Origin: Paramesorhizobium endophyticum
Lineage (GTDB): Bacteria > Pseudomonadota > Alphaproteobacteria > Rhizobiales > Rhizobiaceae
Assembly (NCBI RefSeq): GCF_014640615.1
Contig: NZ_BMHH01000014.1
Span: 1 to 64,000, forward strand
Direction of reading: 5' to 3'
Length of the DNA: 64,000 nucleotides
In this document: positions 7,214 to 29,269 of the stretch, piece by piece
Layout of the letters: every line of letters begins with the position of its first letter
Numbering within the stretch: the first letter of the stretch is position 1
Program-made: the position numbers and the translations under genes
The notes under the pieces: generated by a model
Databases searched by the model: none
Told to the model about the DNA's origin: nothing
The model's input: the letters and a program-made list of their open reading frames with translations, nothing else

Positions 7214-7258
7214 GCATGTCTTTATCCCAAAACCGATTCCCACTTTTGGGAGACATGC
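7214..7258. repeat. Short palindromic intergenic repeat between ATPase and permease genes
   Basis: Two nested inverted repeats (GCATGTCT/AGACATGC and CCCAAAA/TTTTGGG) form an interrupted hairpin. From memory, very similar strings are scattered between genes in Brucella and Ochrobactrum genomes. It overlaps an alternative upstream start of the permease gene, which supports the later start at 7180. Confidence 0.55.
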
Positions 7259-7259
7259 T

Positions 7260-8797
<1,538 letters not shown>

Positions 8798-8801
<4 letters not shown>

Positions 8802-9448: not shown

Positions 9449-9747
9449 GGGTGTGCCTCGGCAATTCCCCGAAGGGAGCGCTGGTGTCTGTCTGGTGTCA
9501 AGGATTGGAGCGTCGGTTTTCCGTGGCGGCGTGAGCATGAACTAGCAGCGGTTCCAACCAGAAAAGCCGATTACGGGCTTCCGCCTCATGGCGGTAAATT
9601 GTGTTTGCCACGATTTCCTCCCATCGAAATGCCCGGTGGAGGTCTCCCTACTCCGCCCGGCCCAGCGCTCTCCACGATCACTGCGTTATGGTCGTGTTAA
9701 TTAATGCAATTGGTATGTTAAGTTTATGGGCGCTGTCAACGGGTCAT

Positions 9748-11808: not shown

Positions 11809-11877
11809 AGTTAACCGAGTGTGCAATATGCGGCGCGAAGTGATCGTGTCTACGGCGCGCCGAGGGAGTTGGCAGGA

Positions 11878-13389
11878 ATGACGGAACCCGAAACATACGA
11901 CCTCTTCGTGATCGGTGGAGGCATCAATGGTGCCGGCATTGCCCGGGATGCCGCAGGGCGCGGATTGTCGGTCCTCATGTGCGAGAAGGACGATCTTGCC
12001 GAAGGCACCTCTTCACGTTCCGGCAAGCTCGTCCATGGCGGATTGAGATATCTCGAATATTATGAATTCCGCCTCGTCCGCGAAGCGCTAATCGAGCGGG
12101 AAGTGCTGCTGAACTCCGCCAGCCACATCATCTGGCCGATGCGCTTCGTCTTGCCCCACAGCCCGAATGACCGCCCGGCATGGCTGGTCCGTCTCGGCCT
12201 TTTCCTTTACGACCATCTGGGCGGACGCAAGAAGCTGCCCGGCACCCGCACCATCGACCTGCGCCGCGATCCCGAGGGCGCCGCGATAGAGGATCAATAT
12301 ACCAAGGCGTTCGAATATTCCGACTGCTGGGTGGATGATGCCCGCCTCGTTATCCTCAACGCCATGGATGCCGCCGGAAAAGGCGCGAAGATATTGACGC
12401 GCACGGCGTGCGCCAGCATTCGCCGCGAAAAGGGAATGTGGATTGCGCAGCTTCGCGACATCAATAGCGGCGCTGTCACCAGCATTCGCGCCCGCGCCGT
12501 CGTCAACGCCGCCGGTCCCTGGGTCAACGATGTGATCGGCAGGATCGCCGGCGCCAACAGCCGCCGTTCGGTACGCCTCGTCAAGGGAAGCCATATCATC
12601 GTGCCGAAGTTCTGGAGCGGGCAGAATGCCTATCTGGTTCAGAACAGCGACAAGCGTGTGATCTTCATCAATCCTTACGAGGGCGACAAGGCCCTGATCG
12701 GCACCACCGACATCCCCTATGAAGGGGCACCTGAAACGGTCGCTGCCGACGAGGCGGAAATCGATTATCTGATCAAGGTGGTTAATCGCTATTTCAAGGA
12801 GAAGCTGCGCCGGTCCGATGTGATCGAAAGCTTCTCCGGCGTGCGCCCGCTTTTCGACGATGGCCAGGGCAATCCTTCAGCCGTCACCCGGGACTATGTC
12901 TTCGATCTCGACGAGACGGATGGCGCGCCGCTACTCAACGTGTTCGGCGGTAAGATCACGACATTCCGCAAGCTCTCCGAGCATGCTTTGCAAAAATTGG
13001 AGAAATATTTCCCGAAAATGGGAGGGGACTGGACAGCCAAGGCCACACTGCCGGGCGGCGATATCCCCAACGCCGATTACGTAGCGTTCTTCGAGACCTT
13101 GCGTGCGGATTATCCGTGGATGCCGCGCCATCTCATCGATCATTATGGCCGGCTTTATGGAACGCGGTTGCGTGAAATCATCGGCCATGCGGCCTCGCTG
13201 GATGGGCTTGGGCGTCATTTCGGCGGCAATCTCTATGAGGCGGAGGTTCGTTATCTGGTTAAAAAGGAATGGGCACAGACCGCTGAGGATGTGGTGTGGC
13301 GGCGGACCAAGGAGAGCCTGCGCATGACGCCGCAGCAGAAGGCTGATTTTGCCGCGTGGTTCCGGTCGGAATTGGCGAACGCCGCGTGA
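11878..13389 (+). CDS. eryB: L-erythritol-4-phosphate dehydrogenase EryB
   Basis: Start chosen at ATG 11878 (MTEPETYDL), giving 503 residues, close to the length I recall for Brucella EryB (about 502). An earlier in-frame start would add 19 residues without resemblance to the family. The FAD motif VIGGGINGAG lies at residues 11-20, followed by TSSRSGKLVHGGLRYLEYYEF, NAAGPWVND and FGGKITTFRKLSE, all typical of GlpD-type dehydrogenases. It oxidises L-erythritol 4-phosphate to L-3-tetrulose 4-phosphate, presumably passing electrons to the respiratory chain. It is followed by eryC after about 30 bp. Confidence 0.94.
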   Translation: MTEPETYDLFVIGGGINGAGIARDAAGRGLSVLMCEKDDLAEGTSSRSGKLVHGGLRYLEYYEFRLVREALIEREVLLNSASHIIWPMRFVLPHSPNDRPAWLVRLGLFLYDHLGGRKKLPGTRTIDLRRDPEGAAIEDQYTKAFEYSDCWVDDARLVILNAMDAAGKGAKILTRTACASIRREKGMWIAQLRDINSGAVTSIRARAVVNAAGPWVNDVIGRIAGANSRRSVRLVKGSHIIVPKFWSGQNAYLVQNSDKRVIFINPYEGDKALIGTTDIPYEGAPETVAADEAEIDYLIKVVNRYFKEKLRRSDVIESFSGVRPLFDDGQGNPSAVTRDYVFDLDETDGAPLLNVFGGKITTFRKLSEHALQKLEKYFPKMGGDWTAKATLPGGDIPNADYVAFFETLRADYPWMPRHLIDHYGRLYGTRLREIIGHAASLDGLGRHFGGNLYEAEVRYLVKKEWAQTAEDVVWRRTKESLRMTPQQKADFAAWFRSELANAA

Positions 13390-13418
13390 CTTCATCCCGA
13401 ATTTATCGAGATCCAGAT

Positions 13419-14354
13419 ATGCCCCTCACTCTGTCGCTGAACACAAATCCGCTCGTCAACCGCTTCGCTGACCCAGACGATCTTATCGATACGGTCGCGC
13501 AGCAGTTGAAGATCAGGGACTTGCAGCTGACCCACGAATTCATCAATCCGAGCTGGCACGCACCGGTAATCAGCCGGCTAATCCGCCAGATGAGGGGAGC
13601 CTTGCAGCGCACGGGTGTCCGCATCACCTCAGGCATGACGGGTCCCTATGGCCGCCTCAATCATTTCGGCCACCCGGACCGGGATGTGCGCTGCTATTAT
13701 GTCGACTGGTTCAAGACATTTTCCGATATCACAGGGGAACTTGGCGGCACGTCCGTCGGCACGCAGTTCGCCATTTTCACCTATCGCGATTACGACGATC
13801 CCGCTCGCCGGGAAGAGCTCATCGACATAGCAATCGATTGCTGGGCTGAAGTTGCCGAGCATGCCCGTGCGGCGGGCCTCTCCTATGTGTTCTGGGAGCC
13901 GATGAGCATCGGGCGTGAGTTCGGTGAGACGATCGAGGCCTGCATGGCGTTGCAGGATCGAATCGCCGCGGCGAAAATGGCTATCCCCATGTGGATGATG
14001 GCCGATATCGACCATGGCGACGTCACCTCCGATAATCCTGATGATTACGATCCCTATGCATGGGCGCGCGCGGTGCCGCCTGTCTCGCCGATCATCCACA
14101 TCAAGCAGAGCCTTATGGATAAGGGTGGGCACCGTCCGTTCACCGCGGAGTTCAACGCCAAAGGTCGGATACAGCCCGAACCGCTGCTTGAAGCTTTTCG
14201 CCAGGGCGGTGCGGCGGATAATGAAATCTGCCTTGAATTGTCCTTCAAGGAACGGGAGCCGAACGACCGGCTGGTCATTCCGCAGATTGCCGAAAGCATT
14301 GCATTCTGGGCGCCGTATATCGACACCGGCGCATCGGAGCTTAATATCGGCTGA
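13419..14354 (+). CDS. eryC: Tetrulose-4-phosphate racemase EryC
   Basis: 311 residues from ATG 13419 (MPLTLSLNTNPLVNRF), near the 309 residues I recall for the Brucella protein. It is a xylose-isomerase-superfamily TIM barrel. Visible features are GMTGPYGRLNHFGHPD, FWEPMSIGREFGET, MADIDHGDV and a closing ELSFKERE segment that fit metal-dependent sugar-phosphate isomerases. It was long annotated as a dehydrogenase, but no Rossmann nucleotide motif is present. Work on Brucella (Barbier and colleagues, 2014) showed that EryC interconverts L- and D-3-tetrulose 4-phosphate. The start is weakly marked (GAG only), and an upstream GTG overlapping the eryB stop is an alternative. Confidence 0.92.
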   Translation: MPLTLSLNTNPLVNRFADPDDLIDTVAQQLKIRDLQLTHEFINPSWHAPVISRLIRQMRGALQRTGVRITSGMTGPYGRLNHFGHPDRDVRCYYVDWFKTFSDITGELGGTSVGTQFAIFTYRDYDDPARREELIDIAIDCWAEVAEHARAAGLSYVFWEPMSIGREFGETIEACMALQDRIAAAKMAIPMWMMADIDHGDVTSDNPDDYDPYAWARAVPPVSPIIHIKQSLMDKGGHRPFTAEFNAKGRIQPEPLLEAFRQGGAADNEICLELSFKEREPNDRLVIPQIAESIAFWAPYIDTGASELNIG

Positions 14355-14395
14355 AGCCCTATGGGGCGGGAGTCGCGGAGACAGTAGCATTCGTC

Positions 14396-15334
14396 ATGTC
14401 GGATTATGAAAACTCGCTGGCTGTAAGGGCTGCCTGGCTGCATTATGTCGGCGGGTTGACGCAAGCTGCCGTGGCGAAAAGGCTCGGCATTCCATCCGTG
14501 AAGGCCCACCGGCTGATTGCGCGCGCTGTTGCCGAAGGCGTGGTCAAGGTGAGCATTGACGGCGAGATTGCCGAATGCGCCGATCTGGAAACGAGACTGT
14601 GTCAGCGTTTCGGCCTCGATTACTGCGAGGTCGCGCCTGACATTGACGGAGACGATGGCCTCGCTCTCACAACGCTCAGCCATGCCGGCAGCCGTTTCCT
14701 GAGGCAGGAGATCGAAATGGGAGAGAGCAAGGTCATCGGTTTCGGCCATGGCCGGACCCTTTCCGCTGCGGTAAGCCAGATGCCGCGCATATCGGCCAGC
14801 GGCAAGACGTTCGTCTCCCTCTTGGGTGGCCTCACCCGCAACTACGCCGCCAATCCGCACGATGTCATGCATCGGCTGGCTGAGAAGACCGGGACGCAGG
14901 CCTATGTCATGCCCGTGCCCTTCTTCGCCAATTCCGAGGAGGACAGGGACGTCTTCCTTGCCCAGCGGGGGGTGCGGGAGATTTTTCAGCTGGCAAGCAG
15001 CGCCGATCTCAAGATCGTCGGTATCGGTACCGTGGATGCCGACGCGCATCTCTTCAAGTCCGGGATGCTGGAAAAGCAGGAGATTGAGGAAATTGCCGCT
15101 CTAGGCGGTGTCGGCGAACTGTTGGGGCATTTTTTCGACAACAGAGGCCGGATCCTGCAGACCTCCGTCACGGCTCGCACATTGGCGGCGCCGCTCCCCG
15201 ATACCGGCAAAGACCGGCTCGTGGCGATTGCGGGCGGATCCATGAAGATTGCCGCGATCAACGCTGTTCTACATAGCAACAAGCTTCACGGTCTTATCAC
15301 GGATGAGGCGACGGCCACGGCGCTGCTCGGATAA
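14396..15334 (+). CDS. eryD: Erythritol operon repressor EryD (SorC family)
   Basis: 312 residues with an N-terminal helix-turn-helix (WLHYVGGLTQAAVAKRLGIPSVKAHRLIARAV) and a large C-terminal SorC/DeoR sugar-binding domain. The C-terminal part shows GESKVIGFGHGRTLSAAVSQMP, FVSLLGGLT and the closing VAIAGGSMKIAAINAVLHS...LITDEATA typical of this family. In Brucella, EryD represses the ery operon and is relieved by erythritol. It sits directly after eryC as in Brucella. Confidence 0.93.
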   Translation: MSDYENSLAVRAAWLHYVGGLTQAAVAKRLGIPSVKAHRLIARAVAEGVVKVSIDGEIAECADLETRLCQRFGLDYCEVAPDIDGDDGLALTTLSHAGSRFLRQEIEMGESKVIGFGHGRTLSAAVSQMPRISASGKTFVSLLGGLTRNYAANPHDVMHRLAEKTGTQAYVMPVPFFANSEEDRDVFLAQRGVREIFQLASSADLKIVGIGTVDADAHLFKSGMLEKQEIEEIAALGGVGELLGHFFDNRGRILQTSVTARTLAAPLPDTGKDRLVAIAGGSMKIAAINAVLHSNKLHGLITDEATATALLG

Positions 15335-15421
15335 GGCAATCGAAATCACAAAAATTATGTGACTTTGTTAAAGTACGGTGTTATTTCTAAAACGAGCGCT
15401 CCCACGGTAGAAAGCTGGTTA

Positions 15422-16198
15422 ATGAAACGCGAAGAACGCAGGCAGGAAATCATAAACCTTCTGGTTGAAAACCGGGCGGTCGACCTTGATAACCTGGCCG
15501 AGCGCTTTGCGGTATCGAAAATGACCATTCACCGGGATCTCGACGATCTCGAATCTGCGGGCGTCCTTCGCAAGATTCGTGGCGGCGCGACCATCGATGC
15601 CGGTACGCAATTCGAAAGCGATTTCCGCATCCGGCAGATGCAGGAGGCCGAAGTCAAGCAGGCGATCGTCCGTGTCGCGGTCGATCTCGTGGAGCCGGGG
15701 ATGACTGTCATCGTCAATGATGGGTCGATGGCCGCGGTCTTCGGTGAACTGCTTCTGGAAAAACGCCCGCTGACCATCATGACGAACAATGCGGCGATCA
15801 TGGAAAGGGTCAAGGGCGAAAGCGGCATCCGCTTGATTGCCCTCGGCGGCGTCTATTCGCCGAAGTTCAATGCTTATCTCGGAATTATGACGGAAGAATC
15901 CCTGTCACGGCTGCGCGCGGACATTGCCTTCGTGTCCACGCCGGCGGCGTCGGGCCGGTTTGCCTATCACATGGATGAAGATGTCGTGCGGACGAAGCGT
16001 GCGATGATGAAATCCAGCCGGCAGACCTGCCTGCTCATCAACAGCAGGCGTTTTGGCCACACGGCGCTGCATGTGCTGGGCGAGCTTTCCGAATTCAACA
16101 CAATCATATCGGACAAGCCGCTGCCGGAAGATATTTCCGCTGAGCTTGTCCGTGCCGGTACGACAATCAAGATCGCGAGACGGGAGGAAGACAATTGA
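15422..16198 (+). CDS. eryR: DeoR-family regulator of the ery operon (EryR)
   Basis: Start chosen at ATG 15422 (MKREERRQEII), where the DeoR helix-turn-helix begins; 258 residues. An upstream ATG at 15359 would add 21 unconserved residues. The winged-helix segment is NLAERFAVSKMTIHRDLDDLESAGVLRKIRGGA. The sensor domain carries VNDGSMAAVFGELL, IMTNNAAIMERV and ALGGVYSPKFNAYLG. It is placed between eryD and the two isomerase genes, and its stop overlaps the TTG start of the next gene by 4 bp. In Brucella the gene at this position has been called eryR. Confidence 0.9.
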   Translation: MKREERRQEIINLLVENRAVDLDNLAERFAVSKMTIHRDLDDLESAGVLRKIRGGATIDAGTQFESDFRIRQMQEAEVKQAIVRVAVDLVEPGMTVIVNDGSMAAVFGELLLEKRPLTIMTNNAAIMERVKGESGIRLIALGGVYSPKFNAYLGIMTEESLSRLRADIAFVSTPAASGRFAYHMDEDVVRTKRAMMKSSRQTCLLINSRRFGHTALHVLGELSEFNTIISDKPLPEDISAELVRAGTTIKIARREEDN

Positions 16199-16965
16199 GC
16201 CAGGAACGGCGCTATTGGGTCGGCACCAGCTGGAAGATGAACAAGACGCTGGCGGAGGCCTTGGCTTTTGCGGCGGGCTTGAAGGAGGCCGACGCTAATC
16301 GGCACCCCCGGATACAGCAATTTGTCATCCCGCCTTTCACCGCGGTGCGGCAGGTAAAGGAGGCCTTGGGCGATACATCCGTCAAGGTCGGCGCGCAGAA
16401 TATGCACTGGGCGGACCAGGGCGCGTGGACCGGCGAGATTTCTCCCCTCATGCTGAGGGATTGCGGCCTCGATATCGTCGAACTCGGCCATTCCGAACGC
16501 CGCGAATATTTTGGCGAAACCGACGAGACGGTTGGACTGAAAACGGAAGCCGCCGTCCGCCACGGCCTGATACCGCTGATCTGCATCGGCGAGACCCTTG
16601 ACGACCGGGAAAGCGGCAGGGCCTCGGAGGTGCTGGCCCGGCAGGTGAGGGGGGCTTTGTCGCGTCTGGCAGGCGAGCAGAAGCAGGCGGAAGTTCTTCT
16701 TGCCTATGAGCCGGTCTGGGCCATCGGCGAAAAGGGCATCCCGGCCACCGCCGATTATGCCGATGCCCGCCATGCGGAGATTGCCGCTTTTGCCGAGGAG
16801 ATCATGAGGCGGAAGATTCCCTGCCTCTATGGCGGCTCGGTTAACCCCGAGAATTGTCAGGAACTCATCTCTTGCCCGCATATCGACGGGCTCTTCATCG
16901 GCCGCTCGGCCTGGCAAGTCGAAGGCTATCTCGACATCCTGGCGCGCTGCGCCGCAACCATCTGA
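16195..16965 (+). CDS. eryH: D-3-tetrulose-4-phosphate isomerase EryH (TpiA2)
   Basis: A 256-residue triose-phosphate-isomerase homologue starting at TTG, with a strong GGAGG ribosome site; the start overlaps the eryR stop (TTGA). The TIM catalytic set is intact: K14 in SWKMNK, H100 in ELGHSERRE and E173 in [10 protein letters not shown]. The C-terminal phosphate loops are [10 protein letters not shown] and GLFIGRSAW. In Brucella this enzyme (TpiA2, renamed EryH) converts D-3-tetrulose 4-phosphate to D-erythrulose 4-phosphate. It is therefore a paralogue recruited for C4 chemistry, not the glycolytic enzyme. Confidence 0.92.
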
Positions 16966-16975
16966 GGAGACGCAA

Positions 16976-17437
16976 ATGAAACTTGCAATTGCCGGAGACA
17001 GCGCAGGCGAGGGACTCGCCAAGATTCTCGCCGATTACCTTAGGGATCGCCATGAGGTCGCGGAAATTTCCCGTACCTCGCAAGGTCCTGATACCTACTA
17101 CGCCAATCTCTCGGACCGGGTGGCATCCGCCGTTCTGGCGGGAGAATATGACCGCGCCATTCTTGTTTGTGGTACCGGCATTGGCGTCTCTATCGCTGCG
17201 AACAAAGTCCCGGGCATCCGGGCAGCTCTGACCCATGACACTTATTCCGCCGAGCGAGCGGCCCTGTCCAACAATGCGCAGATCATCACGATGGGCGCCC
17301 GGGTGATCGGTCCGGAGCTCGCGAAGGCGATCGCGGATGCCTATCTCGCGCAGACCTTCGACGAGAACGGCCGTTCCGCAGGCAATGTGAACGCCATCAA
17401 TGAGGTCGATGCCAAGTACAATGCGAAGAAGGGCTGA
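16976..17437 (+). CDS. eryI: D-erythrose-4-phosphate isomerase EryI (RpiB-like)
   Basis: 153 residues from ATG 16976, with TGAGGAGA upstream. RpiB/LacAB fold: IAGDSAGEG near the N-terminus (D8), catalytic Cys C65 in [15 protein letters not shown] and [27 protein letters not shown]. In Brucella, RpiB (renamed EryI) isomerises D-erythrulose 4-phosphate to D-erythrose 4-phosphate, which enters the pentose phosphate pathway. It is the last gene of the ery operon, 10 bp after eryH, and is followed by a hairpin. Confidence 0.92.
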
Positions 17438-17468
17438 CTGCCCTAGCTAGATATCCCTTCGCGGATCA

Positions 17469-17502
17469 AGGTGAGTTCGGTGACAAGTCAGCGAACTCAC
17501 CT
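17469..17502. terminator. Hairpin between eryI and the convergent GntR gene
   Basis: A perfect 11-bp inverted repeat (AGGTGAGTTCG / CGAACTCACCT) with a 12-nt loop lies 31 bp past eryI and 50 bp past the end of the convergent regulator gene. It has no clear T run. Its place between convergent genes suggests a shared terminator. Confidence 0.65.
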
Positions 17503-17552
17503 ATATGAAGGAAGCTGCTGCCGTTATTGAGTCGTACGGTCCCAACTGCGGT

Positions 17553-18260: not shown

Positions 18261-18369
18261 TGCTTCTCACCACTCACGTGCCTTGTGTCCTTATGCCTTT
18301 TCGGCTGTCCCGAGAAAAGGTGTTTACCCATCGAGCGAGGCTCCCTCACCATTTTTCGCTTGCGTGATT

Positions 18370-18388
18370 GGAATACTCATTATACCAG
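18370..18388. promoter_or_regulatory. Possible regulator-binding site upstream of oiaX
   Basis: GGAATACTCAT-TATACCAG. The same block, GGAATGCTCATT...TATACCAG, occurs at 21057-21083 upstream of apnO, but with GACTGGT inserted so that it becomes a full palindrome there. The site lies about 60 bp upstream of oiaX and 110 bp upstream of the divergent regulator gene. The shared context suggests a common operator or promoter. Confidence 0.45.
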
Positions 18389-18448
18389 ATAATGCATGTA
18401 CGCTAAGCGATTATCGCGGCGCGACGGACGCATAGTTTTGAAATCGCC

Positions 18449-19705
18449 ATGCACATCAGCCTGACCTATCGCATCGAGACCACCGGCAGCATTGAAAAGA
18501 TGGCTGCCAAGATCGCAAGTGATCAGTCGACCGGCACTTTTGTCGCTGTTCCCGGAGAAACCGAAGAACTGAAGGCACGCGTCGCAGCGCGTGTGCTGGA
18601 AATCCGCCCTCTGGAGGACGCAACTACTCCCGCATGGCCCGAACTTGAACCCGGGCATGGCCCGATCAATCGCGCCGATGTCGACATCGCTTTTCCGCTC
18701 GAGGCCATCGGCACCGATCTGGCTGCATTGATGACGATTGCGGTGGGTGGCGTTTACTCGATCAAGGGCATGACCGGGATCCGCGTCATCGATATGAAGC
18801 TGCCTGAGGCTTTCCGCAGCGCGCATCCCGGCCCGCAATTCGGCATTGCCGGAAGCCGCCGCCTGACCGGTGTCGAAAAGCGCCCGATCATCGGCACCAT
18901 CGTCAAGCCCGCCCTTGGCCTGCGCCCGGAAGAAACAGCGGAGCTTGTGGGTGAGTTGATCGCATCCGGGGTCGATTTCATCAAGGATGATGAAAAGCTG
19001 ATGAGCCCGGCCTATTCGCCGCTGGAAGCGCGCGTCAAGGCAATCATGCCGCGCATTCTCGATCATGAGCAGAAGACTGGAAAGAAGGTGATGTATGCCT
19101 TCGGCATTTCACATGCCGATCCGGATCAAATGATGCGCAACCATGATCTGGTGCTCAAAGCCGGTGGCAATTGCGCCGTCATCAACATCAATTCCATCGG
19201 TTTTGGCGGCATGAGCTTTCTGCGCAGGCGCTCCGGCCTCGTGCTGCATGCGCACCGCAACGGCTGGGACGTCCTCACCCGCAATCCGGGTGCGGGCATG
19301 GATTTCCGCGTATACCAGCAGTTCTGGCGCCTGCTCGGCGTGGACCAGTTCCAGATCAACGGCATTCGCGTCAAATATTGGGAGCCGGACGAAAGTTTCG
19401 TCAATTCGTTCAAGGCTGTCAGCACGCCGCTGTTTACGCCTGCTGACTGTCCGCTTCCGGTTGCGGGTTCAGGCCAGTGGGGCGGACAAGCGCCCGAGAC
19501 CTATGAGCGCACGGGCCGCACGACGGACCTGCTTTATCTGTGCGGCGGCGGCATTGTCAGCCATCCGGGCGGTCCTGCTGCCGGCGTTCGCGCCGTCCAA
19601 CAGGCGTGGGAAGCAGCCGTCGCCGGCATCCCGCTTGAAACCTATGCGCTCGACCACCTCGAACTTGCAGCGTCGCTCGCCAAATTCGGCAAGGGAGGCG
19701 AATGA
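18449..19705 (+). CDS. oiaX: RuBisCO-like 3-oxo-isoapionate-4-phosphate transcarboxylase/hydrolase
   Basis: 418 residues of RuBisCO large-chain family. The active-site region GTIVKPALGLRP (K153) and the carbamylated-Lys motif DFIKDDE (K179, D181, E182) are kept, as is HAHRNG at 267-272. The loop-6 region that should carry the carboxylation Lys reads VAGSGQWGGQAPE, with no Lys. It therefore cannot be a CO2-fixing RuBisCO. In the D-apiose route described by Carter and colleagues (2018), OiaX splits 3-oxo-isoapionate 4-phosphate, as I recall to 3-phosphoglycerate and glycolate. The next genes are oiaK and apnO, which strongly supports this over the methionine-salvage RLP role. Confidence 0.92.
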   Translation: MHISLTYRIETTGSIEKMAAKIASDQSTGTFVAVPGETEELKARVAARVLEIRPLEDATTPAWPELEPGHGPINRADVDIAFPLEAIGTDLAALMTIAVGGVYSIKGMTGIRVIDMKLPEAFRSAHPGPQFGIAGSRRLTGVEKRPIIGTIVKPALGLRPEETAELVGELIASGVDFIKDDEKLMSPAYSPLEARVKAIMPRILDHEQKTGKKVMYAFGISHADPDQMMRNHDLVLKAGGNCAVININSIGFGGMSFLRRRSGLVLHAHRNGWDVLTRNPGAGMDFRVYQQFWRLLGVDQFQINGIRVKYWEPDESFVNSFKAVSTPLFTPADCPLPVAGSGQWGGQAPETYERTGRTTDLLYLCGGGIVSHPGGPAAGVRAVQQAWEAAVAGIPLETYALDHLELAASLAKFGKGGE

Positions 19706-21052
19706 ATGACACGGGCTGCCGAGCGCTTGCTGCTGTCCTATTATGGGGACGACCTCACCGGATCGACCGATGTGATGGAGGCTCTGGCGTCCAATGGCGT
19801 CGATACGGTTCTGTTCATGAACGTGCCGGATACCGCATTGCTCAGCCGCTTCTCGCATTGCAGTGCCATCGGCCTAGCGGGAACCAGCCGGAGCGAAACG
19901 CCGGAATGGATGGACGAACACCTCACGCCGGCATTCAACTGGCTGAGAAGCCTCGACGCAGCGATCTGCCATTACAAGGTATGCTCGACCTTCGATTCCG
20001 CGCCGCATGTCGGAAATATCGGCAAGGCAATCGAAATCGGCAAAGCCGTTTACCAGCAAGCCTATGTGCCGCTGATCGTCGGAGCGCCGCAACTCAAACG
20101 TTATACGTCTTTCGGCAATCTATTCGCCGCGTATCAGGGCGACGTCTATCGCATCGACCGGCATCCGGTGATGAGCCGGCATCCGGTTACGCCCATGCGC
20201 GAAGCGGACCTTCGCCTGCATCTGGCCGCACAGACCTCGCTCAAAACCGCGCTCGCCGATCTCGCGACGCTTGCGGCAAGCGACGCCGATGAGCGCGTCG
20301 GCGCAATCGCCAGGGGTACGGACGGTATCCTGTTGTTCGATGTGGATAGCCACGAAAGTCAGTCGCAGGCCGGCGAACAGGTCTGGCGCCTGCGGACTGA
20401 GACAGGCTGGTTCGTTGCCGGGTCGTCTGGCGTGGAATATGCGCTTCTTGTCGCCTGGGCGAAGGCGGGGCTGATCGGCGCTCAAAAGCATTTCCCGCTC
20501 CCCGGCAGAACTGACCGTATCGCGGTTGTTTCGGGAAGCGTATCGCCGACCACTGAACGCCAGATCCGCCATGCAACGGCATCGGGCTTTACGGGCATCA
20601 ACCTCGATCCGCTCGGTCTCCTCGGCGAGAACGGCAGCCAAGCTATCGAGAACGCCATTGCCGAGGGCCAGAAGGCGCTTCAGCAGGGCAACAGCGTCAT
20701 TCTCAACACAGCGCTTGGCCCATCCGCGGACCGCGGTGCGGAAATTGACCGTATCGCAGGCAGCCGCCACCGGCTTGGCCGCATTCTGGGCCACATCCTC
20801 CGCAATCTGGTTGAACGCGAGGGGCTGACGCGTGTGGTCGTTGCGGGTGGAGACACATCCAGCCACGCATTGCGTGAATTGCATGTCGATGCGCTGACAA
20901 CGCTTCTGCCTCTGCCACAAACCCCAGGCTCTCCGCTTTGCACCGCGCACGGCGCTTACCCCGCCACCAATGGCCTGCAGGTAGCGCTTAAGGGCGGCCA
21001 GGTCGGCTCGGACGGCTATTTCACCCAGATTCGCGACGGAATTGCCGCTTAA
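19706..21052 (+). CDS. oiaK: 3-oxo-isoapionate kinase (DUF1537 family)
   Basis: 448 residues in the two-domain DUF1537 four-carbon acid sugar kinase fold. The N-terminal domain begins YYGDDLTGSTDVMEAL, the family hallmark, and contains HYKVCSTFDSAPHVGNIGKA. The C-terminal nucleotide domain contains VVSGSVSPTTERQI and VVAGGDTSSHALREL. It phosphorylates 3-oxo-isoapionate to the 4-phosphate that OiaX uses. The start ATG follows the oiaX stop directly, with AAGGGAGG as ribosome site inside oiaX. Confidence 0.91.
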   Translation: MTRAAERLLLSYYGDDLTGSTDVMEALASNGVDTVLFMNVPDTALLSRFSHCSAIGLAGTSRSETPEWMDEHLTPAFNWLRSLDAAICHYKVCSTFDSAPHVGNIGKAIEIGKAVYQQAYVPLIVGAPQLKRYTSFGNLFAAYQGDVYRIDRHPVMSRHPVTPMREADLRLHLAAQTSLKTALADLATLAASDADERVGAIARGTDGILLFDVDSHESQSQAGEQVWRLRTETGWFVAGSSGVEYALLVAWAKAGLIGAQKHFPLPGRTDRIAVVSGSVSPTTERQIRHATASGFTGINLDPLGLLGENGSQAIENAIAEGQKALQQGNSVILNTALGPSADRGAEIDRIAGSRHRLGRILGHILRNLVEREGLTRVVVAGGDTSSHALRELHVDALTTLLPLPQTPGSPLCTAHGAYPATNGLQVALKGGQVGSDGYFTQIRDGIAA

Positions 21053-21069
21053 ATCTGGAATGCTCATTG

Positions 21070-21084
21070 ACTGGTTATACCAGT
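21070..21084. promoter_or_regulatory. FadR-type operator upstream of apnO
   Basis: ACTGGTTATACCAGT, a perfect 6-bp inverted repeat around TAT. It matches the TGGTnnnACCA form bound by FadR-subfamily GntR proteins. It lies 36 bp before apnO and 18 bp after oiaK. Together with the related block at 18370-18388 it suggests that the regulator at 17553-18260 controls both oiaX and an internal apnO promoter. Confidence 0.62.
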
Positions 21085-21119
21085 TAAGCTAACAAACACA
21101 CGGGAAGGGAAATACGATC

Positions 21120-22977
<1,858 letters not shown>

Positions 22978-22984
22978 TCCGGCG

Positions 22985-23008
22985 GCCGGGAGCATTCGTG
23001 CTCCCGGC
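22985..23008 (+). terminator. TTCG-capped hairpin after the apiose binding-protein gene
   Basis: GCCGGGAGCA-TTCG-TGCTCCCGGC: a perfect 10-bp stem with a very stable UUCG loop, 7 bases past the stop codon. No T run follows. It most likely protects the upstream mRNA end or partly stops transcription so that binding protein is made in excess over the membrane parts. Confidence 0.7.
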
Positions 23009-23028
23009 AATATTCCAATGTCGAGGAT

Positions 23029-23679
23029 ATGTTCATGTCAGTGCTGAAGTCAGCTTCCATCATCCTGCTGGCCTGCGGCGTTGCACTCTCGGGCTGCAAG
23101 ATCGTCAAGACGCAGTCGGCAGAAGAAGCCGCAGAGGCACGCGGCGACAATTTCAACGCTGATCGTTCGGTTGCCGATATCTGGGAAACCAAGCTCAAGC
23201 CGTACTTTGCCGGAAAGACAGCCTCCCTTGACGAGGTCATGGCCGCAGCCAGCGCAGATGCCGATGCCGCGGGCGCCAAATACGGCCATAGAGAAAACCG
23301 GGGCGATGCTCCCTGGACGTTCATGGCTAAGCTTGAAGGTACGGTGGTTGCCGCTCAAACCAAGTCGCGCGCGGCTTATGTCGATGTCGACAGCAATGGC
23401 GACGGCAGGGCGGATGCGCGTGTGCAGATCGGTCCGACGGTGCGCGGCAGCGCAATCCGCGACAGCCTTTCCTTCCTGAATTTCAATGATTTCCGCAACC
23501 AGATCGACTGGGCGCAGTTCGGCAAGGCCCTCAATGTTCGCGTCAATGAAGAGGTTTTGTCCAAGCTGCCGCGCGAAGACCTGATCGGAATGAAGATAGA
23601 GGCTCAAGGCGCTTTCCCGCTGCCGTCGAAAGGTCAACTTCCGCTTGTTACCCCGGTTTCCGTTTCTTTGGAGAAATAG
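23029..23679 (+). CDS. DUF2291-family lipoprotein of the apiose importer operon
   Basis: 216 residues from ATG 23029, with GAGG six bases upstream; ATG 23035 is also possible. A lipoprotein signal with lipobox LSGC (about residues 20-23) marks it for lipid attachment. The mature part has GAKYGHRENRGDAPWTFMAKLEGTV, SFLNFNDFRNQIDWAQFGKALN and a closing LPLVTPVSVSLE. It shares its overall design with the DUF2291 protein at 8798-9448. It lies between binding-protein and ATPase genes, 3 bp before the latter. Function unknown; an accessory envelope role with ribose-type ABC importers is my inference. Confidence 0.82.
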   Translation: MFMSVLKSASIILLACGVALSGCKIVKTQSAEEAAEARGDNFNADRSVADIWETKLKPYFAGKTASLDEVMAAASADADAAGAKYGHRENRGDAPWTFMAKLEGTVVAAQTKSRAAYVDVDSNGDGRADARVQIGPTVRGSAIRDSLSFLNFNDFRNQIDWAQFGKALNVRVNEEVLSKLPREDLIGMKIEAQGAFPLPSKGQLPLVTPVSVSLEK

Positions 23680-23682
23680 GCC

Positions 23683-25269
23683 ATGGAAACGGAAGCAAAT
23701 CGGAAAGACGATATTGTCCTCAGGCTCGAGGACGTCTCCAAGGTCTATTCGGGCATTGTGGCCGTCAAGCGCGCCAATCTCGAATTGCGCCGTGGTTCGG
23801 TCAATGTGCTTGTCGGCGAAAATGGTGCGGGCAAGTCGACATTGATGAAAATCATTGCCGGCGTCGAACGGCCGACCATGGGGAAGATCATTCTCGACGG
23901 CGAAGAAGTGTTCTTCGACAGCCCCGCCGATGCGCAACGGCGCGGCATTGCGATGATCTTTCAGGAACTGAATCTGTTTTCCAACATGTCGGTCGCGGAA
24001 AACATCTTCGCCACCCGTGAAATCACACGCGGCTTGCGCGGCATCGATCACAAGGCGCAAGTCGCGAAGGCCAGCGAATATCTTGACCGTCTCGATGCGG
24101 GCATTAACGCCAATACGCTTGTCGCCGATCTTCCCATCGGCCAGCAACAGCTCGTCGAAATCGCAAAAGCCATTTCGCTCGATGCGCGTATCGTCATCAT
24201 GGACGAACCTACATCGGCGCTGTCCGCCGCCGAAGTCGATATCCTGTTCAAGGTGATTGCCGAACTGAAAAGCCAGGGCGTGGCAATCGTCTATATTTCG
24301 CATCGCCTGGAAGAGCTGATGCGGATCGGCGATTTCATCACGGTTCTGCGGGACGGAAAGATCACCGGCCAGGAAGAAATCAGGAATATCGATACGCAGT
24401 GGATCGTGCGCTCGATGATCGGTTCCGAGGCAAAGGATTTCGCCAAGCTCGGCACCCATGCGATGGGCGCGGAAAGGTTTCGCGCGGAAAACATCACCTT
24501 GCCCCGTCCCACGGGCGGGCTCGCGGTTGACGATGTATCGCTGTCGGTTCTCGCGGGCGAGATCCTCGGCATTTACGGCCTCATGGGTGCTGGACGCTCG
24601 GAATTCTTCGAATGCGTCATGGGACAGCACGGCCATTCCACCGGCCGCATCTATATCGATGGCGAGGAGGTGAAGGAGCGCGATACGACGCGGCGCATCC
24701 GCCGCGGCCTTGCGCTGATACCGGAAGACCGCCAGCGTGAAGGCCTGGTGCAGATATTGTCCATCGCCAGCAATCTGACGCTGGCGAGTCTTGAGCGGCT
24801 GGCGCAGTTCTTCCACATTATGCCGAAGCGTGAAAAGCAGGCCATTCAGCAGGCGATCGAGGATCTTTCGATCAAGGCGCCAAACCCGCAATTCGAAGTA
24901 ACTTCGATGTCTGGCGGCAATCAGCAAAAGGTCGTCATCGGCAAGGCGCTGATGACCAATCCAAAAGTTCTCCTGATGGACGAGCCATCGCGCGGCATAG
25001 ATGTGGGGGCCAAGGCGGATGTCTTCCGAACCATGCGCCGGCTTGCCGCCGGAGGGCTTTCGATCCTGTTCTCGACCTCCGATCTGGAAGAAGTCATGGC
25101 GCTTTCCGATCGCATCGCGGTGCTCAGCAACGGCAAGCTGATCGCCATCTTCGACCGCGACGAAGCAACGGAAGCCGACATCGTTGCCGCCTCAGCCAAG
25201 GGCCACGGGCATGCGTCAGGGCAAGTGCGGGACAACGACCATAACAGACAAACAAGGGAACGCGTGTGA
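23683..25269 (+). CDS. Double-domain sugar ABC ATPase, probable D-apiose importer
   Basis: 528 residues, RbsA/MglA type. First domain: Walker A GENGAGKST at 45-53, signature PIGQQQLVEIAKAI, Walker B IVIMDEPTS. Second domain: degenerate Walker A GLMGAGRSE, signature MSGGNQQKVVIGKAL, Walker B VLLMDEPSR. It powers import together with the permease whose start overlaps its stop. The C-terminal tail past DEATEADIVAASA is poorly conserved and polar. Confidence 0.87.
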   Translation: METEANRKDDIVLRLEDVSKVYSGIVAVKRANLELRRGSVNVLVGENGAGKSTLMKIIAGVERPTMGKIILDGEEVFFDSPADAQRRGIAMIFQELNLFSNMSVAENIFATREITRGLRGIDHKAQVAKASEYLDRLDAGINANTLVADLPIGQQQLVEIAKAISLDARIVIMDEPTSALSAAEVDILFKVIAELKSQGVAIVYISHRLEELMRIGDFITVLRDGKITGQEEIRNIDTQWIVRSMIGSEAKDFAKLGTHAMGAERFRAENITLPRPTGGLAVDDVSLSVLAGEILGIYGLMGAGRSEFFECVMGQHGHSTGRIYIDGEEVKERDTTRRIRRGLALIPEDRQREGLVQILSIASNLTLASLERLAQFFHIMPKREKQAIQQAIEDLSIKAPNPQFEVTSMSGGNQQKVVIGKALMTNPKVLLMDEPSRGIDVGAKADVFRTMRRLAAGGLSILFSTSDLEEVMALSDRIAVLSNGKLIAIFDRDEATEADIVAASAKGHGHASGQVRDNDHNRQTRERV

Positions 25270-26336
25270 TGACAGCCAACACTTCCGCGGCGGCCGCTGA
25301 CTCCACCATCAATGCCGGTTCGGCCCTGCTGACCCTCATGAAATTGAGAACCTTCATCGCGCTTTTCGCGGTGTTCATCTTCTTCTCGTTCGCAGCGCCG
25401 AACTTCCTGTCCGCCGCCAACCTCATCCTCATGTCGAAGCATGTGGCCCTCAATGCGTTCCTTGCGATGGGCATGACCTTCGTCATCATCACCGGGGGCA
25501 TCGACCTTTCGGTCGGCTCCATCGTCGGACTTTGCGGCATGGTGGCGGGTGGTCTTCTGATCTACGGCATCGACCTTGGCATCGGCTATACGATCTACTT
25601 CAACATCATCGAGATATCGCTGATTACGCTCGCCGTTGGGGTCGGGGTCGGCTTCATAAACGGGCTATTGATAACCAAGCTGAATGTGGCGCCTTTCATC
25701 GCAACGCTCGGCACGCTCTATGTGGCGCGCGGCCTCGCTCTCCTTTCGTCCGACGGTCAGACCTTTCCAAATCTCGTTGGCCGTGAGGAGCTTGGCACCA
25801 CCGGGTTCGGCTTCCTCGGTTCGGGCAGCATCCTGGGCCTGCCGGTTTCGATCTGGATACTGATCGCTGTGGCATTGATCGCAGCCTATGTCGCCCGCTA
25901 CACACCGCTTGGTCGCCAGATTTTCGCGGTCGGCGGCAACGAGCGCGCGGCCCGGATGTCGGGTATCCGCGTAGATCGCGTAAAGATGTTCGTTTACATG
26001 TTTTCCGGCTTCTGCGCGGCGATTGCAGGCCTTATCATCTCCTCCGAGCTGATGTCGTCGCATCCGGCGACGGGCAATTCCTTCGAACTCAACGCCATCG
26101 CGGCAGCCGTTCTCGGCGGCACTTCCATGTCGGGCGGGCGCGGCACCATTGGGGGCACGATCATCGGCGCGTTCGTGATCGGCATTCTCTCGGACGGTTT
26201 GGTGATGATGGGCGTCTCGTCCTTCTGGCAGATGGTCATCAAGGGTCTCGTCATCATCATCGCCGTGGTGGTCGACCAGGCACAACGCCGCCTGCAGCAG
26301 CGCGTGACGCTGATGCAGATGGCGAAAGCAGGATAA
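25269..26336 (+). CDS. Ribose-type ABC permease, probable D-apiose importer
   Basis: 355 residues from ATG 25269; a GTG one codon upstream is an alternative start. RbsC/BPD_transp_2 family with multiple membrane segments, the hallmark FVIITGGIDLSVGSIVGLCG, VAPFIATLGTLYVARG, the coupling segment AVGGNERAARMSGIRVDRVK and AVLGGTSMSGGRGTIGGT. It is a paralogue of the permease at 6140-7180. It overlaps the ATPase stop and precedes apsD by 12 bp, indicating one transcript. Confidence 0.87.
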   Translation: MTANTSAAAADSTINAGSALLTLMKLRTFIALFAVFIFFSFAAPNFLSAANLILMSKHVALNAFLAMGMTFVIITGGIDLSVGSIVGLCGMVAGGLLIYGIDLGIGYTIYFNIIEISLITLAVGVGVGFINGLLITKLNVAPFIATLGTLYVARGLALLSSDGQTFPNLVGREELGTTGFGFLGSGSILGLPVSIWILIAVALIAAYVARYTPLGRQIFAVGGNERAARMSGIRVDRVKMFVYMFSGFCAAIAGLIISSELMSSHPATGNSFELNAIAAAVLGGTSMSGGRGTIGGTIIGAFVIGILSDGLVMMGVSSFWQMVIKGLVIIIAVVVDQAQRRLQQRVTLMQMAKAG

Positions 26337-26348
26337 AGGGGAGACCAA

Positions 26349-27383
26349 ATGGCAGAATTGAACGGCGCCCTGATTGGCTGCGGTTTCTTCGCGATCAATC
26401 AGATGCATGCATGGAATGATGTTTCAGGCGCCAAAATCGTGGCGATCTGCGACCGTGATCCCGAACGGCTGAGAATTGTCGCGGACCAGTTCGGCATCGA
26501 GCGCCGCTATACGGATGCGCAGGCGCTCTTCGCTGACGGCGGCTTCGATTTTGTCGATATCGCCACCACCGTTTCAAGCCATCGCCCCTTGGTGGAACTT
26601 GCCGCCGCATATAAGATACCGACGATTTGCCAGAAGCCTTTCGCCGAGACTCTCGACGACGCAAAGGCGATGGTGAAAGCCTGCCGCGAGGCGGGCGTTC
26701 CGCTTATGGTGCACGAAAACTTCCGCTGGCAAACGCCCATTCAGGCCGTTCGGCACGCGCTCGACAGCGGCGCAATCGGCACCCCCTTCTGGGGTCGTTT
26801 CTCGTTCCGCTCCGGCTTCGATGTCTTCTCCGGCCAGCCCTATCTTGCGGAAGGCGAGCGCTTCATTATCGAAGACCTTGGTATCCATACGCTCGATATT
26901 GCACGCTTCATTTTGGGGGACGTCACGAGCCTCGTCGCACGCACCAGGCGCGTCAATCCGAAAATCAAGGGCGAAGACGTAGCGACCATTCTCATGGATC
27001 ACGAAAACGGCGCGACTTCAGTCGTCGATGTGAGCTATGCGTCAAAATTGGAAAACGATCCCTTCCCCGAAACTCTGATAGAGCTCGATGGCACGGAAGG
27101 CTCGATCCGGCTTCGTCAGGGCTACCGTCTTGAATTGATCACATCCGCCAAAACCGTAGTTTTGGACGTTCCTCCGAAGCTGCTGCCCTGGGCTTCGCAA
27201 CCCTGGCACAATATTCAGGAAAGCGTTTATGCCATCCAGCAGCATTGGGTGGACAGGCTCCGCTCCGGTGAAGAAACGTCCACTTCCGGTATCGACAATC
27301 TCAAAACTTTTGCCCTCGTCGAAGCGGCCTATGAAAGCGCCGCCACCGGCGAGCGCGTCGATGTTACGGCTTTACTCAAATGA
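26349..27383 (+). CDS. apsD: D-apiose dehydrogenase (Gfo/Idh/MocA family)
   Basis: 344 residues. N-terminal Rossmann motif LIGCGFFA (G10-x-G12), the family Lys in CQKPFAE (K96) and the active-site region EDLGIHTLDIARF with D176 and H180. In the apiose pathway ApsD oxidises D-apiose to D-apionolactone with NAD. Its last codons overlap the apnL start (ATGA), and the lactonase for its product is the next gene, so the substrate call is well supported by context. Confidence 0.9.
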   Translation: MAELNGALIGCGFFAINQMHAWNDVSGAKIVAICDRDPERLRIVADQFGIERRYTDAQALFADGGFDFVDIATTVSSHRPLVELAAAYKIPTICQKPFAETLDDAKAMVKACREAGVPLMVHENFRWQTPIQAVRHALDSGAIGTPFWGRFSFRSGFDVFSGQPYLAEGERFIIEDLGIHTLDIARFILGDVTSLVARTRRVNPKIKGEDVATILMDHENGATSVVDVSYASKLENDPFPETLIELDGTEGSIRLRQGYRLELITSAKTVVLDVPPKLLPWASQPWHNIQESVYAIQQHWVDRLRSGEETSTSGIDNLKTFALVEAAYESAATGERVDVTALLK

Positions 27384-29206
27384 ACAGCGACGATCCCTTC
27401 CTGCTCTATGGAACCCGCGAAGCGGAAGCCCGCCCCCGGAATCTCAAGGCCGGGCTGCTTACAGTCGATCTCAGCGGCGGTAATCTTCGTACCATAACCT
27501 ATGACAGCGTCGAGGTCCTGCGTGGCATCTCGTATCTCGTGCGCGACAGGGATTGGGGTACTTACAGTCTTCAAATCCATGATCTAAAAGTGGAAACCAG
27601 CGAGAGCGGTTTCGCTGTGACCTATCGGGCATGCTGCCATGGCCCTGACGATACGCAACTGATGATCGATGCGCACATCGAGGCGGACGTCAGCGGAACG
27701 CTGGTCTTCGACACCTTGGCCCAGACACCCAGCGGCTTCGAAACGAACCGTTGCGGCTTCTGCATTCTGCATCCGATTGTAGGGCTGGCCGGATCACCCG
27801 TAACCGTCGAGCATATCGACGGAAAGCGTATAGATACTCGCTTGCCCGACCTGATCGAGCCGTGGCAGCCTTTCATGAACATGCGTGCCATCACCCACGA
27901 AGTCGTTCCAGGCGTCCTGGCGGAATGCCGGATGGAAGGCGATACGTTCGAGATGGAAGACCAGCGCAATTGGTCGGATGCGTCTTATAAGATCTATGTG
28001 CGCCCGCTCGCGTTGCCATGGCCGTACTGGATGGAAGCCGGTACGCCGGTTCATCAACGCATCGTGCTCAATATCCGCGACACACGACAAACGAAGCCTG
28101 CGCGCAGAGCGGGGACTGCAGAGCCGATAAACATCACGCTCGGTGAAGCTACCGGTGTGATGCCCAATATCGGCATCATTGTCACACCGGAAGAAGCCAA
28201 AGCGACCCTTGCAGCAATCGAGCTGCTGGAGGAGATCGCCCCTCAGGATCTGCTGTTCCATTATGACCCGCTGGAAGGCCATAACGGGGGCGCCTTCGCA
28301 GAATTCGCGGCCCTGGCAGCCAGGCACAAGGGACGCGTCTCGCTTGAAATCGCCTTGCCTTGCGAAAGCGCGCTTATCGACGAGACGATGGCGATCGCCA
28401 ACGACATGAAAGCCGCCGGCTTCATGCCGGACGCAATCATTGTTTCGCCTTCCATCGACCGGCAATCCACCCCTCCCGGCAGTGAATGGCCGCCCTGTCC
28501 GCCGCTGAAAGATGTCTATGCCGCGACGCGAGCGGCTTTTCCGAATGCTCGTCTTGGCGGCGGGATGCTGAGTTATTTTACCGAACTTAACCGCAAGCGC
28601 GTTCCGGGCCATCTGATCGATTTCGTCACCCATTGCACCAACCCGATCGTGCATGCAGCCGACGATCTGAGCGTGATGCAGACGCTTGAAGCGCTGCCAT
28701 TCATCACGCGCTCGGTGCGCGCCATTTATGGCGCCAAGCCTTATCGCATCGGGCCTTCCACCATCGCCATGCGCCAGAATCCCTATGGCAGCCGGACGAT
28801 GGATAATCCGGACGGCAAGCGCATCGCCATGGCCAACCGCGATCCTCGCCATAACGGAAAATTCGCGGCAGCCTTTGCGATGGGCTATGCAAGATCCGTA
28901 TTGGACGCAGGTCTCGACAGTCTCACGCTTTCGGCGCTAACCGGCCAGTTCGGGCTCATTGCGGGCGAACGCGAGCCTTCATCGGCGGGAGGGAAGCGGC
29001 CAATTTTCGAAACAGTGAAGACGCTCGCTGCCATGGCTGGTCGAAACTGGCGGGAGTGTGTCTCGTCGAAGCCATCGCAAGTTGTTGGATTTGCCGTGGA
29101 CGACACGGTTCACCTCGTCAATTTGTCCGCGATGGAACTGACAGTTTTCGTTTTGAAGAAAAAAGTCACGCTGCCGCCTTACGCAACCGAAATAGCGGCA
29201 ATGTAA
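27380..29206 (+). CDS. apnL: D-apionate lactonase
   Basis: 608 residues, starting inside the apsD stop. It has no signal peptide and no familiar small-domain motifs. The first half (about 1-240) looks beta-rich (GGNLRTITYDSVEVLRGISYLVRDRDWG, NRCGFCILHPI). The second half looks like a TIM barrel (NIGIIVTPEEAKATL, DLLFHYDPLEGH, IIVSPSIDRQSTPPGSEWPP, GGMLSYFTELNRKRVP). This matches the large lactonase that opens D-apionolactone to D-apionate in the pathway of Carter and colleagues. It ends the apiose operon; the convergent LysR gene ends 63 bp away. Confidence 0.87.
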   Translation: MNSDDPFLLYGTREAEARPRNLKAGLLTVDLSGGNLRTITYDSVEVLRGISYLVRDRDWGTYSLQIHDLKVETSESGFAVTYRACCHGPDDTQLMIDAHIEADVSGTLVFDTLAQTPSGFETNRCGFCILHPIVGLAGSPVTVEHIDGKRIDTRLPDLIEPWQPFMNMRAITHEVVPGVLAECRMEGDTFEMEDQRNWSDASYKIYVRPLALPWPYWMEAGTPVHQRIVLNIRDTRQTKPARRAGTAEPINITLGEATGVMPNIGIIVTPEEAKATLAAIELLEEIAPQDLLFHYDPLEGHNGGAFAEFAALAARHKGRVSLEIALPCESALIDETMAIANDMKAAGFMPDAIIVSPSIDRQSTPPGSEWPPCPPLKDVYAATRAAFPNARLGGGMLSYFTELNRKRVPGHLIDFVTHCTNPIVHAADDLSVMQTLEALPFITRSVRAIYGAKPYRIGPSTIAMRQNPYGSRTMDNPDGKRIAMANRDPRHNGKFAAAFAMGYARSVLDAGLDSLTLSALTGQFGLIAGEREPSSAGGKRPIFETVKTLAAMAGRNWRECVSSKPSQVVGFAVDDTVHLVNLSAMELTVFVLKKKVTLPPYATEIAAM

Positions 29207-29269
29207 AGACGCCGCCGGAGCGAACTGTTTTGGCGAAGATGAGAACGCCTGCCCAGCGCTGCGTGTAAC

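What the first reader, a model, noticed from the sequence alone, without database searches (positions are those of the whole stretch)
18449..29206. A complete oxidative D-apiose pathway with its own importer, built on a RuBisCO-like protein
Nine genes in one direction cover every step: uptake, ApsD, ApnL, ApnO, OiaK and OiaX. The RuBisCO-like protein keeps both active-site lysine regions (K153, K179) but has GSGQWGGQAPE where the loop-6 lysine should be, so it is an acid-cleaving enzyme. The scheme follows the apiose work of Carter and colleagues (2018). What may be new is the importer, the DUF2291 lipoprotein and the regulator wired to it.
Basis: partly seen in the sequence, partly recalled or inferred. 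Interest (0 to 1): 0.7.

Follow-up and report, generated by a model that had tools for sequence, protein, structure and literature searches.

The report
Known D-apiose operon beside erythritol genes
This stretch holds a bacterial operon for importing and breaking down the plant sugar D-apiose with a RuBisCO-like decarboxylase; it is a good copy of a system already known from rhizobia, and it probably borrows its last two enzymes from the erythritol genes next door.

Summary
In detail: nine co-directional genes at 18449-29206 encode OiaX, OiaK, ApnO, a CUT2 sugar importer with a DUF2291 lipoprotein, ApsD and ApnL. OiaX and ApnL pass curated equivalog cut-offs; OiaK, ApnO and ApsD rest on best hit and conserved order. 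The same order lies on plasmid p42f of Rhizobium etli CFN 42, whose binding protein from that operon is already crystallised. Importer, DUF2291 and divergent NanR/GntR regulator are therefore not new: among the 80 nearest loci the regulator is in 80, the importer in 72.

OiaX should release L-erythrulose 1-phosphate, which needs LerI and DerI. Here these are tpiA2-rpiB (16195-17437), next to the erythritol genes and the only such copies found in the genome. Of 199 family genomes all 34 with OiaX have DerI, against 24 of the other 165.

Added: a conserved operator-like box at 18369-18387, found without mismatch once in the genome; and that a published R. etli 'Rubisco-like' gene, RHE_RS26630, is this OiaX. 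New member of a known kind; low to moderate interest.

The parts
15359..16198 (+). DeoR-type regulator (eryR position), first gene of the tpiA2-rpiB unit
   Evidence: ORF; name from the eryR-tpiB-rpiB order in PMC3599248 passages; no family search run on it
16195..16965 (+). tpiA2 (EryH/LerI), predicted L-erythrulose-1-phosphate isomerase
   Evidence: TIM-family protein, NF000722 438.9 bits; the only other TIM in the genome is 41% identical; specific function from position and recall
16976..17437 (+). rpiB (EryI/DerI), D-erythrulose-4-phosphate isomerase
   Evidence: NF051858 254.9 bits, cut-off 240; one match in the own genome
17553..18260 (-). NanR-type GntR/FCD regulator, divergent from oiaX
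   Evidence: NF003011 345.7 bits, cut-off 260; FCD and GntR domains; in 80 of 80 loci
18369..18387 (.). operator-like box TGGAATACTCATTATACCA, imperfect inverted repeat between gntR and oiaX
   Evidence: 80 of 81 intergenic regions match TGGNATANNNNNTATNCCA; only zero-mismatch site in the genome
18449..19705 (+). oiaX, RuBisCO-like 3-oxo-isoapionate-4-phosphate decarboxylase
   Evidence: NF042437 786.5 bits, cut-off 700
19706..21052 (+). oiaK, DUF1537-type 3-oxo-isoapionate kinase
   Evidence: best hit NF042436 473.1 bits, under cut-off 700; orthologs in 5 of 5 related loci tested also score 459.5-482.1
21120..21947 (+). apnO, D-apionate oxidoisomerase (PGDH_C family)
   Evidence: PF16896 241 bits; 88% to the R. 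etli gene in the same place; no specific model matched
22021..22977 (+). periplasmic D-apiose/D-ribose-type binding protein
   Evidence: PF13407; PDB 5ibq and 4ry0 E about 1e-155
23029..23679 (+). DUF2291 lipoprotein with LSGC lipobox
23683..25269 (+). CUT2 importer ATPase
   Evidence: ABC_tran, two stretches
25266..26336 (+). CUT2 importer permease
   Evidence: PF02653
26349..27383 (+). apsD, D-apiose dehydrogenase (Gfo/Idh/MocA)
   Evidence: PF01408 and PF22725; 79% to the R. etli gene in the same place; no specific model reached its cut-off
27380..29206 (+). apnL, D-apionate lactonase
   Evidence: NF049900 1031.1 bits, cut-off 750
10258..15334 (+). eryABCD-like erythritol genes that adjoin the exit genes
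   Evidence: ORFs; FGGY kinase, GlpD-family dehydrogenase and DeoR/SorC-type regulator by NCBIfam; gene names from recall and PMC3599248 passages

Best explanation
The locus is an oxidative D-apiose catabolic operon of the OiaX (decarboxylase) type. D-apiose enters by the CUT2 importer (binding protein, ATPase, permease, with the DUF2291 lipoprotein as a partner). ApsD oxidises it to apionolactone, ApnL opens the lactone, ApnO makes 3-oxo-isoapionate by oxidation and hydroxymethyl shift, OiaK phosphorylates it and OiaX decarboxylates it to L-erythrulose 1-phosphate. The product then leaves through LerI and DerI (tpiA2 and rpiB, 16195-17437) to D-erythrose 4-phosphate; these two enzymes lie beside the erythritol genes and are shared with them. 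The divergent NanR-type regulator probably represses its own gene and the operon through the box at 18369-18387. Shown here: the genes, families, order, co-occurrence and box. Inferred: substrate, reaction order, sharing in the living cell, and repression. The reaction chemistry is from recall of Carter 2018 and of the erythritol isomerase work; neither paper could be read here.
For: OiaX and ApnL pass curated equivalog cut-offs; DerI passes. Same gene order in R. etli CFN 42 p42f; a 103-residue stretch of PDB 4ry0 is found letter for letter in the translated binding protein of that operon, and the entry is titled RHE_PF00037 of R. etli CFN 42. Passages of PMC6302742 say the RLP of Agrobacterium radiobacter K84 decarboxylates 3-oxo-isoapionate-4-phosphate. 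All 34 OiaX genomes of 199 have DerI, against 24 of 165 others (Fisher 5e-23, relatedness not corrected). Control: genomes with only a weaker RuBisCO-like match (380-454 bits) have DerI in 4 of 23, no more than genomes with neither, 20 of 142. The own genome has one DerI and one EryH-type TIM. tpiA2-rpiB sit inside the apiose operon in 18 of 80 loci, rpiB alone in 3, and beside ery genes next to the operon in 4. Box in 80 of 81 intergenic regions.
Against: OiaK is under its curated cut-off and ApnO and ApsD match no specific model; they rest on order. The 4ry0 title calls the R. etli protein a ribose transporter binding protein; that 5ibq holds D-apiose is recall only. NCBIfam has no model for LerI among the hits, so tpiA2 is named by position. 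In 55 of 80 loci no ery genes or LerI/DerI were seen within the stretch held, so sharing there is not shown. The box has TGGTATAAT on the - strand, an extended -10 sequence, and could be the gntR promoter rather than an operator. The box is not found next to the exit genes, so how they would be induced by apiose is unexplained.
Confidence: 0.87

Rival explanations
1. The operon degrades D-hamamelose, a branched hexose, with the RuBisCO-like protein acting as an oxygenase that yields 3-phosphoglycerate and glycolate.
For: Such a pathway is reported for Ochrobactrum anthropi (Kim 2018), close to the nearest named relatives; seen only as a sentence in PMC8914248 and a reference in PMC10176493. 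The enzyme set (dehydrogenase, lactonase, dehydrogenase, kinase, RLP) is alike by recall.
Against: OiaX and ApnL equivalog scores. A route ending in 3-phosphoglycerate and glycolate has no use for DerI, yet 34 of 34 OiaX genomes have it. The Kim paper was not read, so which RLP of O. anthropi it studied is unknown to me.
Confidence: 0.06
2. The RuBisCO-like protein is the transcarboxylase/hydrolase kind of apiose enzyme, so LerI and DerI are not needed and their nearness is chance.
For: That kind exists in Xanthobacter (PMC6302742 passage).
Against: OiaX model 786.5 bits, with a clear gap in the family survey: the 34 over the cut-off score 730.6 or more and the next match 453.8; DerI in 34 of 34 OiaX genomes against 4 of 23 with only the weaker RLP.
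Confidence: 0.03
3. The protein is a CO2-fixing RuBisCO-like carboxylase used in biotin-poor growth.
For: PMC8914248 (passages) reports growth phenotypes of mutants in RHE_RS26630, which is the R. etli OiaX, and concludes that it takes part in CO2 fixation.
Against: The loop-6 lysine is absent; the operon is an apiose operon; the 14C values printed in the passage for strain CIAT652 (mutant 1047.3, wild type 630.2) run against the sentence that carries them, and the CFN42 values overlap (1330.1 +/- 272.2 against 1045.5 +/- 216.6).
Confidence: 0.02
4. The importer is mainly a D-ribose or broad pentose importer that happens to sit in an apiose operon.
For: Closest general models are RbsB/RbsA-like and ribose permease; 4ry0 is titled a ribose transporter protein.
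Against: It is present in 72 of 80 OiaX loci, 71 or more by full set with DUF2291 (72 with all four parts), and keeps its place between apnO and apsD.
Confidence: 0.1

Closest known systems
Oxidative D-apiose pathway with OiaX of rhizobia (Carter 2018; recalled, not held; RLP reaction seen in PMC6302742 passages)
   Same: Enzyme families, order and, in R. etli CFN 42, the whole operon with NanR-type regulator, CUT2 importer and DUF2291
   Different: In R. etli LerI and DerI genes lie inside the operon; here they lie upstream, beside ery genes
Erythritol locus eryABCD with eryR-tpiB-rpiB and eryEFG (PMC3599248 passages)
   Same: tpiA2-rpiB unit and ery genes at 10258-17437, a second CUT2 importer with its own DUF2291 at 5073-9538
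   Different: Substrate and upper enzymes; the apiose operon joins it at L-erythrulose 1-phosphate (inferred)
E. coli NanR operator (PMC8012715 passages)
   Same: Regulator family and GGTATA-like half sites
   Different: E. coli has direct GGTATA repeats; here an inverted repeat
TM0957 of Thermotoga maritima, 2f4i
   Different: 17% identity; partner importer differs

Membership tests
OiaX (NF042437) | score over curated equivalog cut-off | tested here: met
   786.5 against 700
OiaX (NF042437) | decarboxylates 3-oxo-isoapionate 4-phosphate | not testable with these tools
   needs enzyme assay
OiaX (NF042437) | downstream isomerase DerI in the same genome | tested here: met
   own genome and 34 of 34 OiaX genomes
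D-apionate lactonase ApnL (NF049900) | score over curated cut-off | tested here: met
   1031.1 against 750
OiaK (NF042436) | score over curated cut-off | tested here: not met
   473.1 against 700; 5 of 5 orthologs from related OiaX loci score 459.5-482.1, so it is called OiaK-like kinase by place
ApnO | PGDH_C domain protein in the operon | tested here: met
   PF16896; activity not testable
ApsD | specific D-apiose dehydrogenase model | tested here: inconclusive
   no such model appeared among the hits; Gfo/Idh/MocA domains present
DerI (NF051858) | score over curated cut-off | tested here: met
   254.9 against 240
LerI/EryH | L-erythrulose-1-phosphate isomerase activity | not testable with these tools
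   TIM family, position beside DerI
NanR/GntR-FCD regulator (NF003011) | score over cut-off, FCD domain | tested here: met
   345.7 against 260; FCD
D-apiose-binding protein | binds D-apiose | not testable with these tools
   80% identical to the R. etli protein
D-hamamelose pathway | RLP oxygenase yielding 3-phosphoglycerate and glycolate | not testable with these tools
   source paper not read; only a sentence seen

The most novel reading that the evidence does not exclude
DUF2291 is an unrecognised fixed partner of one class of CUT2 sugar importers, an OB-fold lipoprotein or membrane-anchored protein that the binding protein, permease or ATPase needs. Both importers of this kind in the window carry one, and these are the only two DUF2291 genes in the genome; in 80 of 80 OiaX loci binding protein and DUF2291 are present or absent together; 16 of 16 DUF2291 genes from a survey of 249 genomes of the phylum lie beside a CUT2-type ATPase.
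Probability: 0.4. Interest if true: 0.45.

Novelty: new member of a known kind. Interest (0 to 1): 0.28.

Why it matters
It shows that a plant-sugar pathway built on a RuBisCO-like protein and the erythritol pathway probably share one exit to D-erythrose 4-phosphate, so each OiaX genome sampled keeps DerI. It also gives a concrete correction to test: the R. etli gene RHE_RS26630, studied as a CO2-fixing Rubisco-like protein, sits in a D-apiose operon and belongs to a decarboxylase family. The conserved box and the DUF2291 pairing are small, testable additions.

Tried and rejected
Methionine-salvage RLP and other DUF1537 kinases: rejected on scores. Structure prediction of the binding protein was poor (mean pLDDT 49.0) and was used only to retrieve the title of 4ry0. 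A sequence search of the PDB found no DUF2291 relative; the fold search did. The Carter 2018 paper is not held. Papers with DUF2291: 0; papers with D-apiose, ABC transporter and Rhizobium: 0; the library holds only open-licence papers, so this does not show absence from print. PMC11005471 held none of the isomerase terms. Promoter and terminator scans of 17400-29500 found no more than shuffles (4 against mean 5.2; 11 against mean 12.1). The box was sought elsewhere as a link between the regulator and the exit genes: none near them; at up to 2 mismatches the window has one more site inside oiaX, no more than chance.

The 80 loci are the best 80 of 428 relatives in the scan, all 85-94% identical, so counts on them speak for near relatives. 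L040 is cut by a contig end and counts among the 8 without importer. In one search some proteins were cut at the nearest ATG and may start late. The tree of tpiA2 and rpiB put copies inside apiose operons and copies beside ery genes on two sides of one branch (rpiB 21 against 5 rows, 100/100; tpiA2 18 against 5 rows, 95/99), which fits dedicated copies in some rhizobia; copies remote from the operon were not included.

Full report
What is there. Nine + strand genes run from 18449 to 29206 with gaps of -4 to 70 bases. By curated models the first is OiaX (786.5 bits, cut-off 700) and the last ApnL (1031.1, cut-off 750); the second is closest to OiaK (473.1) but under its cut-off of 700. The third has the PGDH_C domain, the next four are a periplasmic binding protein, a DUF2291 lipoprotein, a two-domain ATPase and a permease, and the eighth is a Gfo/Idh/MocA protein. 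OiaK orthologs from 5 of 5 related loci tested score 459.5 to 482.1, so the low score is a trait of this group and not of this gene.

It is a known operon. A scan of named genomes gave 428 relatives of OiaX, of which the best 80 were kept, 85 to 94% identical; the nearest named is Brucella pecoris. Around OiaX the divergent NanR-type regulator is found in 80 of 80, and the full importer with DUF2291 in 72 of 80; one of the other eight, L040, ends at a contig end. In R. etli CFN 42 the order is regulator, oiaX, kinase, TIM, RpiB, ApnO, binding protein, DUF2291, ATPase, permease, Gfo/Idh, ApnL, with 53 to 88% identity to the window for the nine genes. The PDB chain 4ry0, titled RHE_PF00037 of R. 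etli CFN 42, matches the translated binding protein of this operon over the 103 residues compared. That 5ibq, the second chain, holds D-apiose is my recall. The 4ry0 title calls it a ribose transporter protein, which speaks against strict apiose specificity.

The exit. Passages of PMC6302742 say the A. radiobacter K84 RLP decarboxylates 3-oxo-isoapionate-4-phosphate. By recall the product is L-erythrulose 1-phosphate, which LerI and DerI turn into D-erythrose 4-phosphate; the same two enzymes end erythritol breakdown. In the window these are tpiA2 and rpiB at 16195-17437; RpiB passes the DerI model (254.9, cut-off 240). The own genome has one match to that model and, besides tpiA2, only a TIM 41% identical to it. 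I therefore tested co-occurrence. In 199 genomes of the family OiaX is over cut-off in 34 and DerI in 58; all 34 are among the 58, leaving 24 of 165. Fisher's test gives 5e-23, without correction for relatedness. As a control, 23 genomes that have only a weaker RuBisCO-like match of 380 to 454 bits have DerI in 4, like genomes with neither (20 of 142). In 33 of the 34 there is one DerI over cut-off; it lies under 5 kb from oiaX in 6, 5 to 35 kb in 7, further on the same contig in 3 and on another contig in 18. In the 80 named loci tpiA2-rpiB lie inside the operon in 18, rpiB alone in 3, and the ery genes adjoin as in the window in 4. Copies inside operons and copies beside ery genes form two sides of one well supported branch. 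The simplest reading is a shared exit, with dedicated copies in some rhizobia.

Regulation. Between gntR and oiaX the string TGGNATANNNNNTATNCCA occurs in 80 of 81 intergenic regions (window and 80 loci); the remaining one, L001, has G at one fixed place, as has R. etli. It is an imperfect inverted repeat. In the own genome it occurs once without mismatch, between gntR and oiaX, and once elsewhere with one mismatch; the reversed control pattern gave 8. E. coli NanR binds direct GGTATA repeats (PMC8012715 passages), so the half site fits and the geometry differs. On the - strand the box reads TGGTATAAT, an extended -10 sequence, so a promoter of gntR is an alternative or additional role. No such box lies at the exit genes; how apiose would raise LerI and DerI is open.

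A link to earlier work. PMC8914248 (passages) made mutants of RHE_RS26630 in R. etli CFN 42 and read the protein as a carboxylase in biotin-independent growth, with neighbours 'related to ribose transport'. RHE_RS26630 is annotated oiaX in the operon above, and the word apiose does not occur in that text. The 14C values printed for strain CIAT652 run against the sentence that reports them. The same paper mentions an RLP in an O. anthropi D-hamamelose pathway; this is the main rival, and DerI co-occurrence speaks against it for OiaX, though the source was not read.

Verdict. The finding is real and correctly read in outline, but ordinary: a new member of a known kind. Interest lies in the shared exit, the box and the DUF2291 pairing. 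The organism is not identified; bench tests in it are referred because its nearest named relatives belong to the genus Brucella.

Noticed in passing
5073-9538 (-): A second CUT2 importer (eryEFG-like) with its own DUF2291 at 8798-9538, whose annotated N-terminal part shows no lipobox.
   Followed up: partly
21948-22017: The gap between apnO and the binding-protein gene holds a perfect 8-pair hairpin GGGAGGGC-GCGA-GCCCTCCC; 66 of 72 related loci have a perfect stem of at least 6 pairs in that gap. No chance control was run.
   Followed up: partly
L026, L041, L076: Of four importer-less loci looked at (L003 the fourth), three seem to have a CUT1-type binding protein and/or permeases just after apnL instead of the CUT2 importer (judged by eye, no family search).
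   Followed up: no
L105 and L104 (G142, same genus): OiaX and regulator beside what looks like a CUT1 transporter without oiaK or apnO nearby, and elsewhere a second RLP (41%) with a DUF1537 kinase and TRAP-like genes.
   Followed up: partly
binding protein, HDNPF motif: The residue after HDNPF is Tyr in the window and in 9 loci with the nearest OiaX, Phe in 55; 8 lacked the exact motif. By recall this is a sugar-stacking place in ribose-binding proteins.
   Followed up: no
825-4081 (-): A GlpD-family dehydrogenase and an FGGY kinase pair beyond the erythritol importer.
   Followed up: no
G000:C21:44124-45017: A second, distant RuBisCO-like match in the own genome, 27% over residues 80-382.
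   Followed up: no
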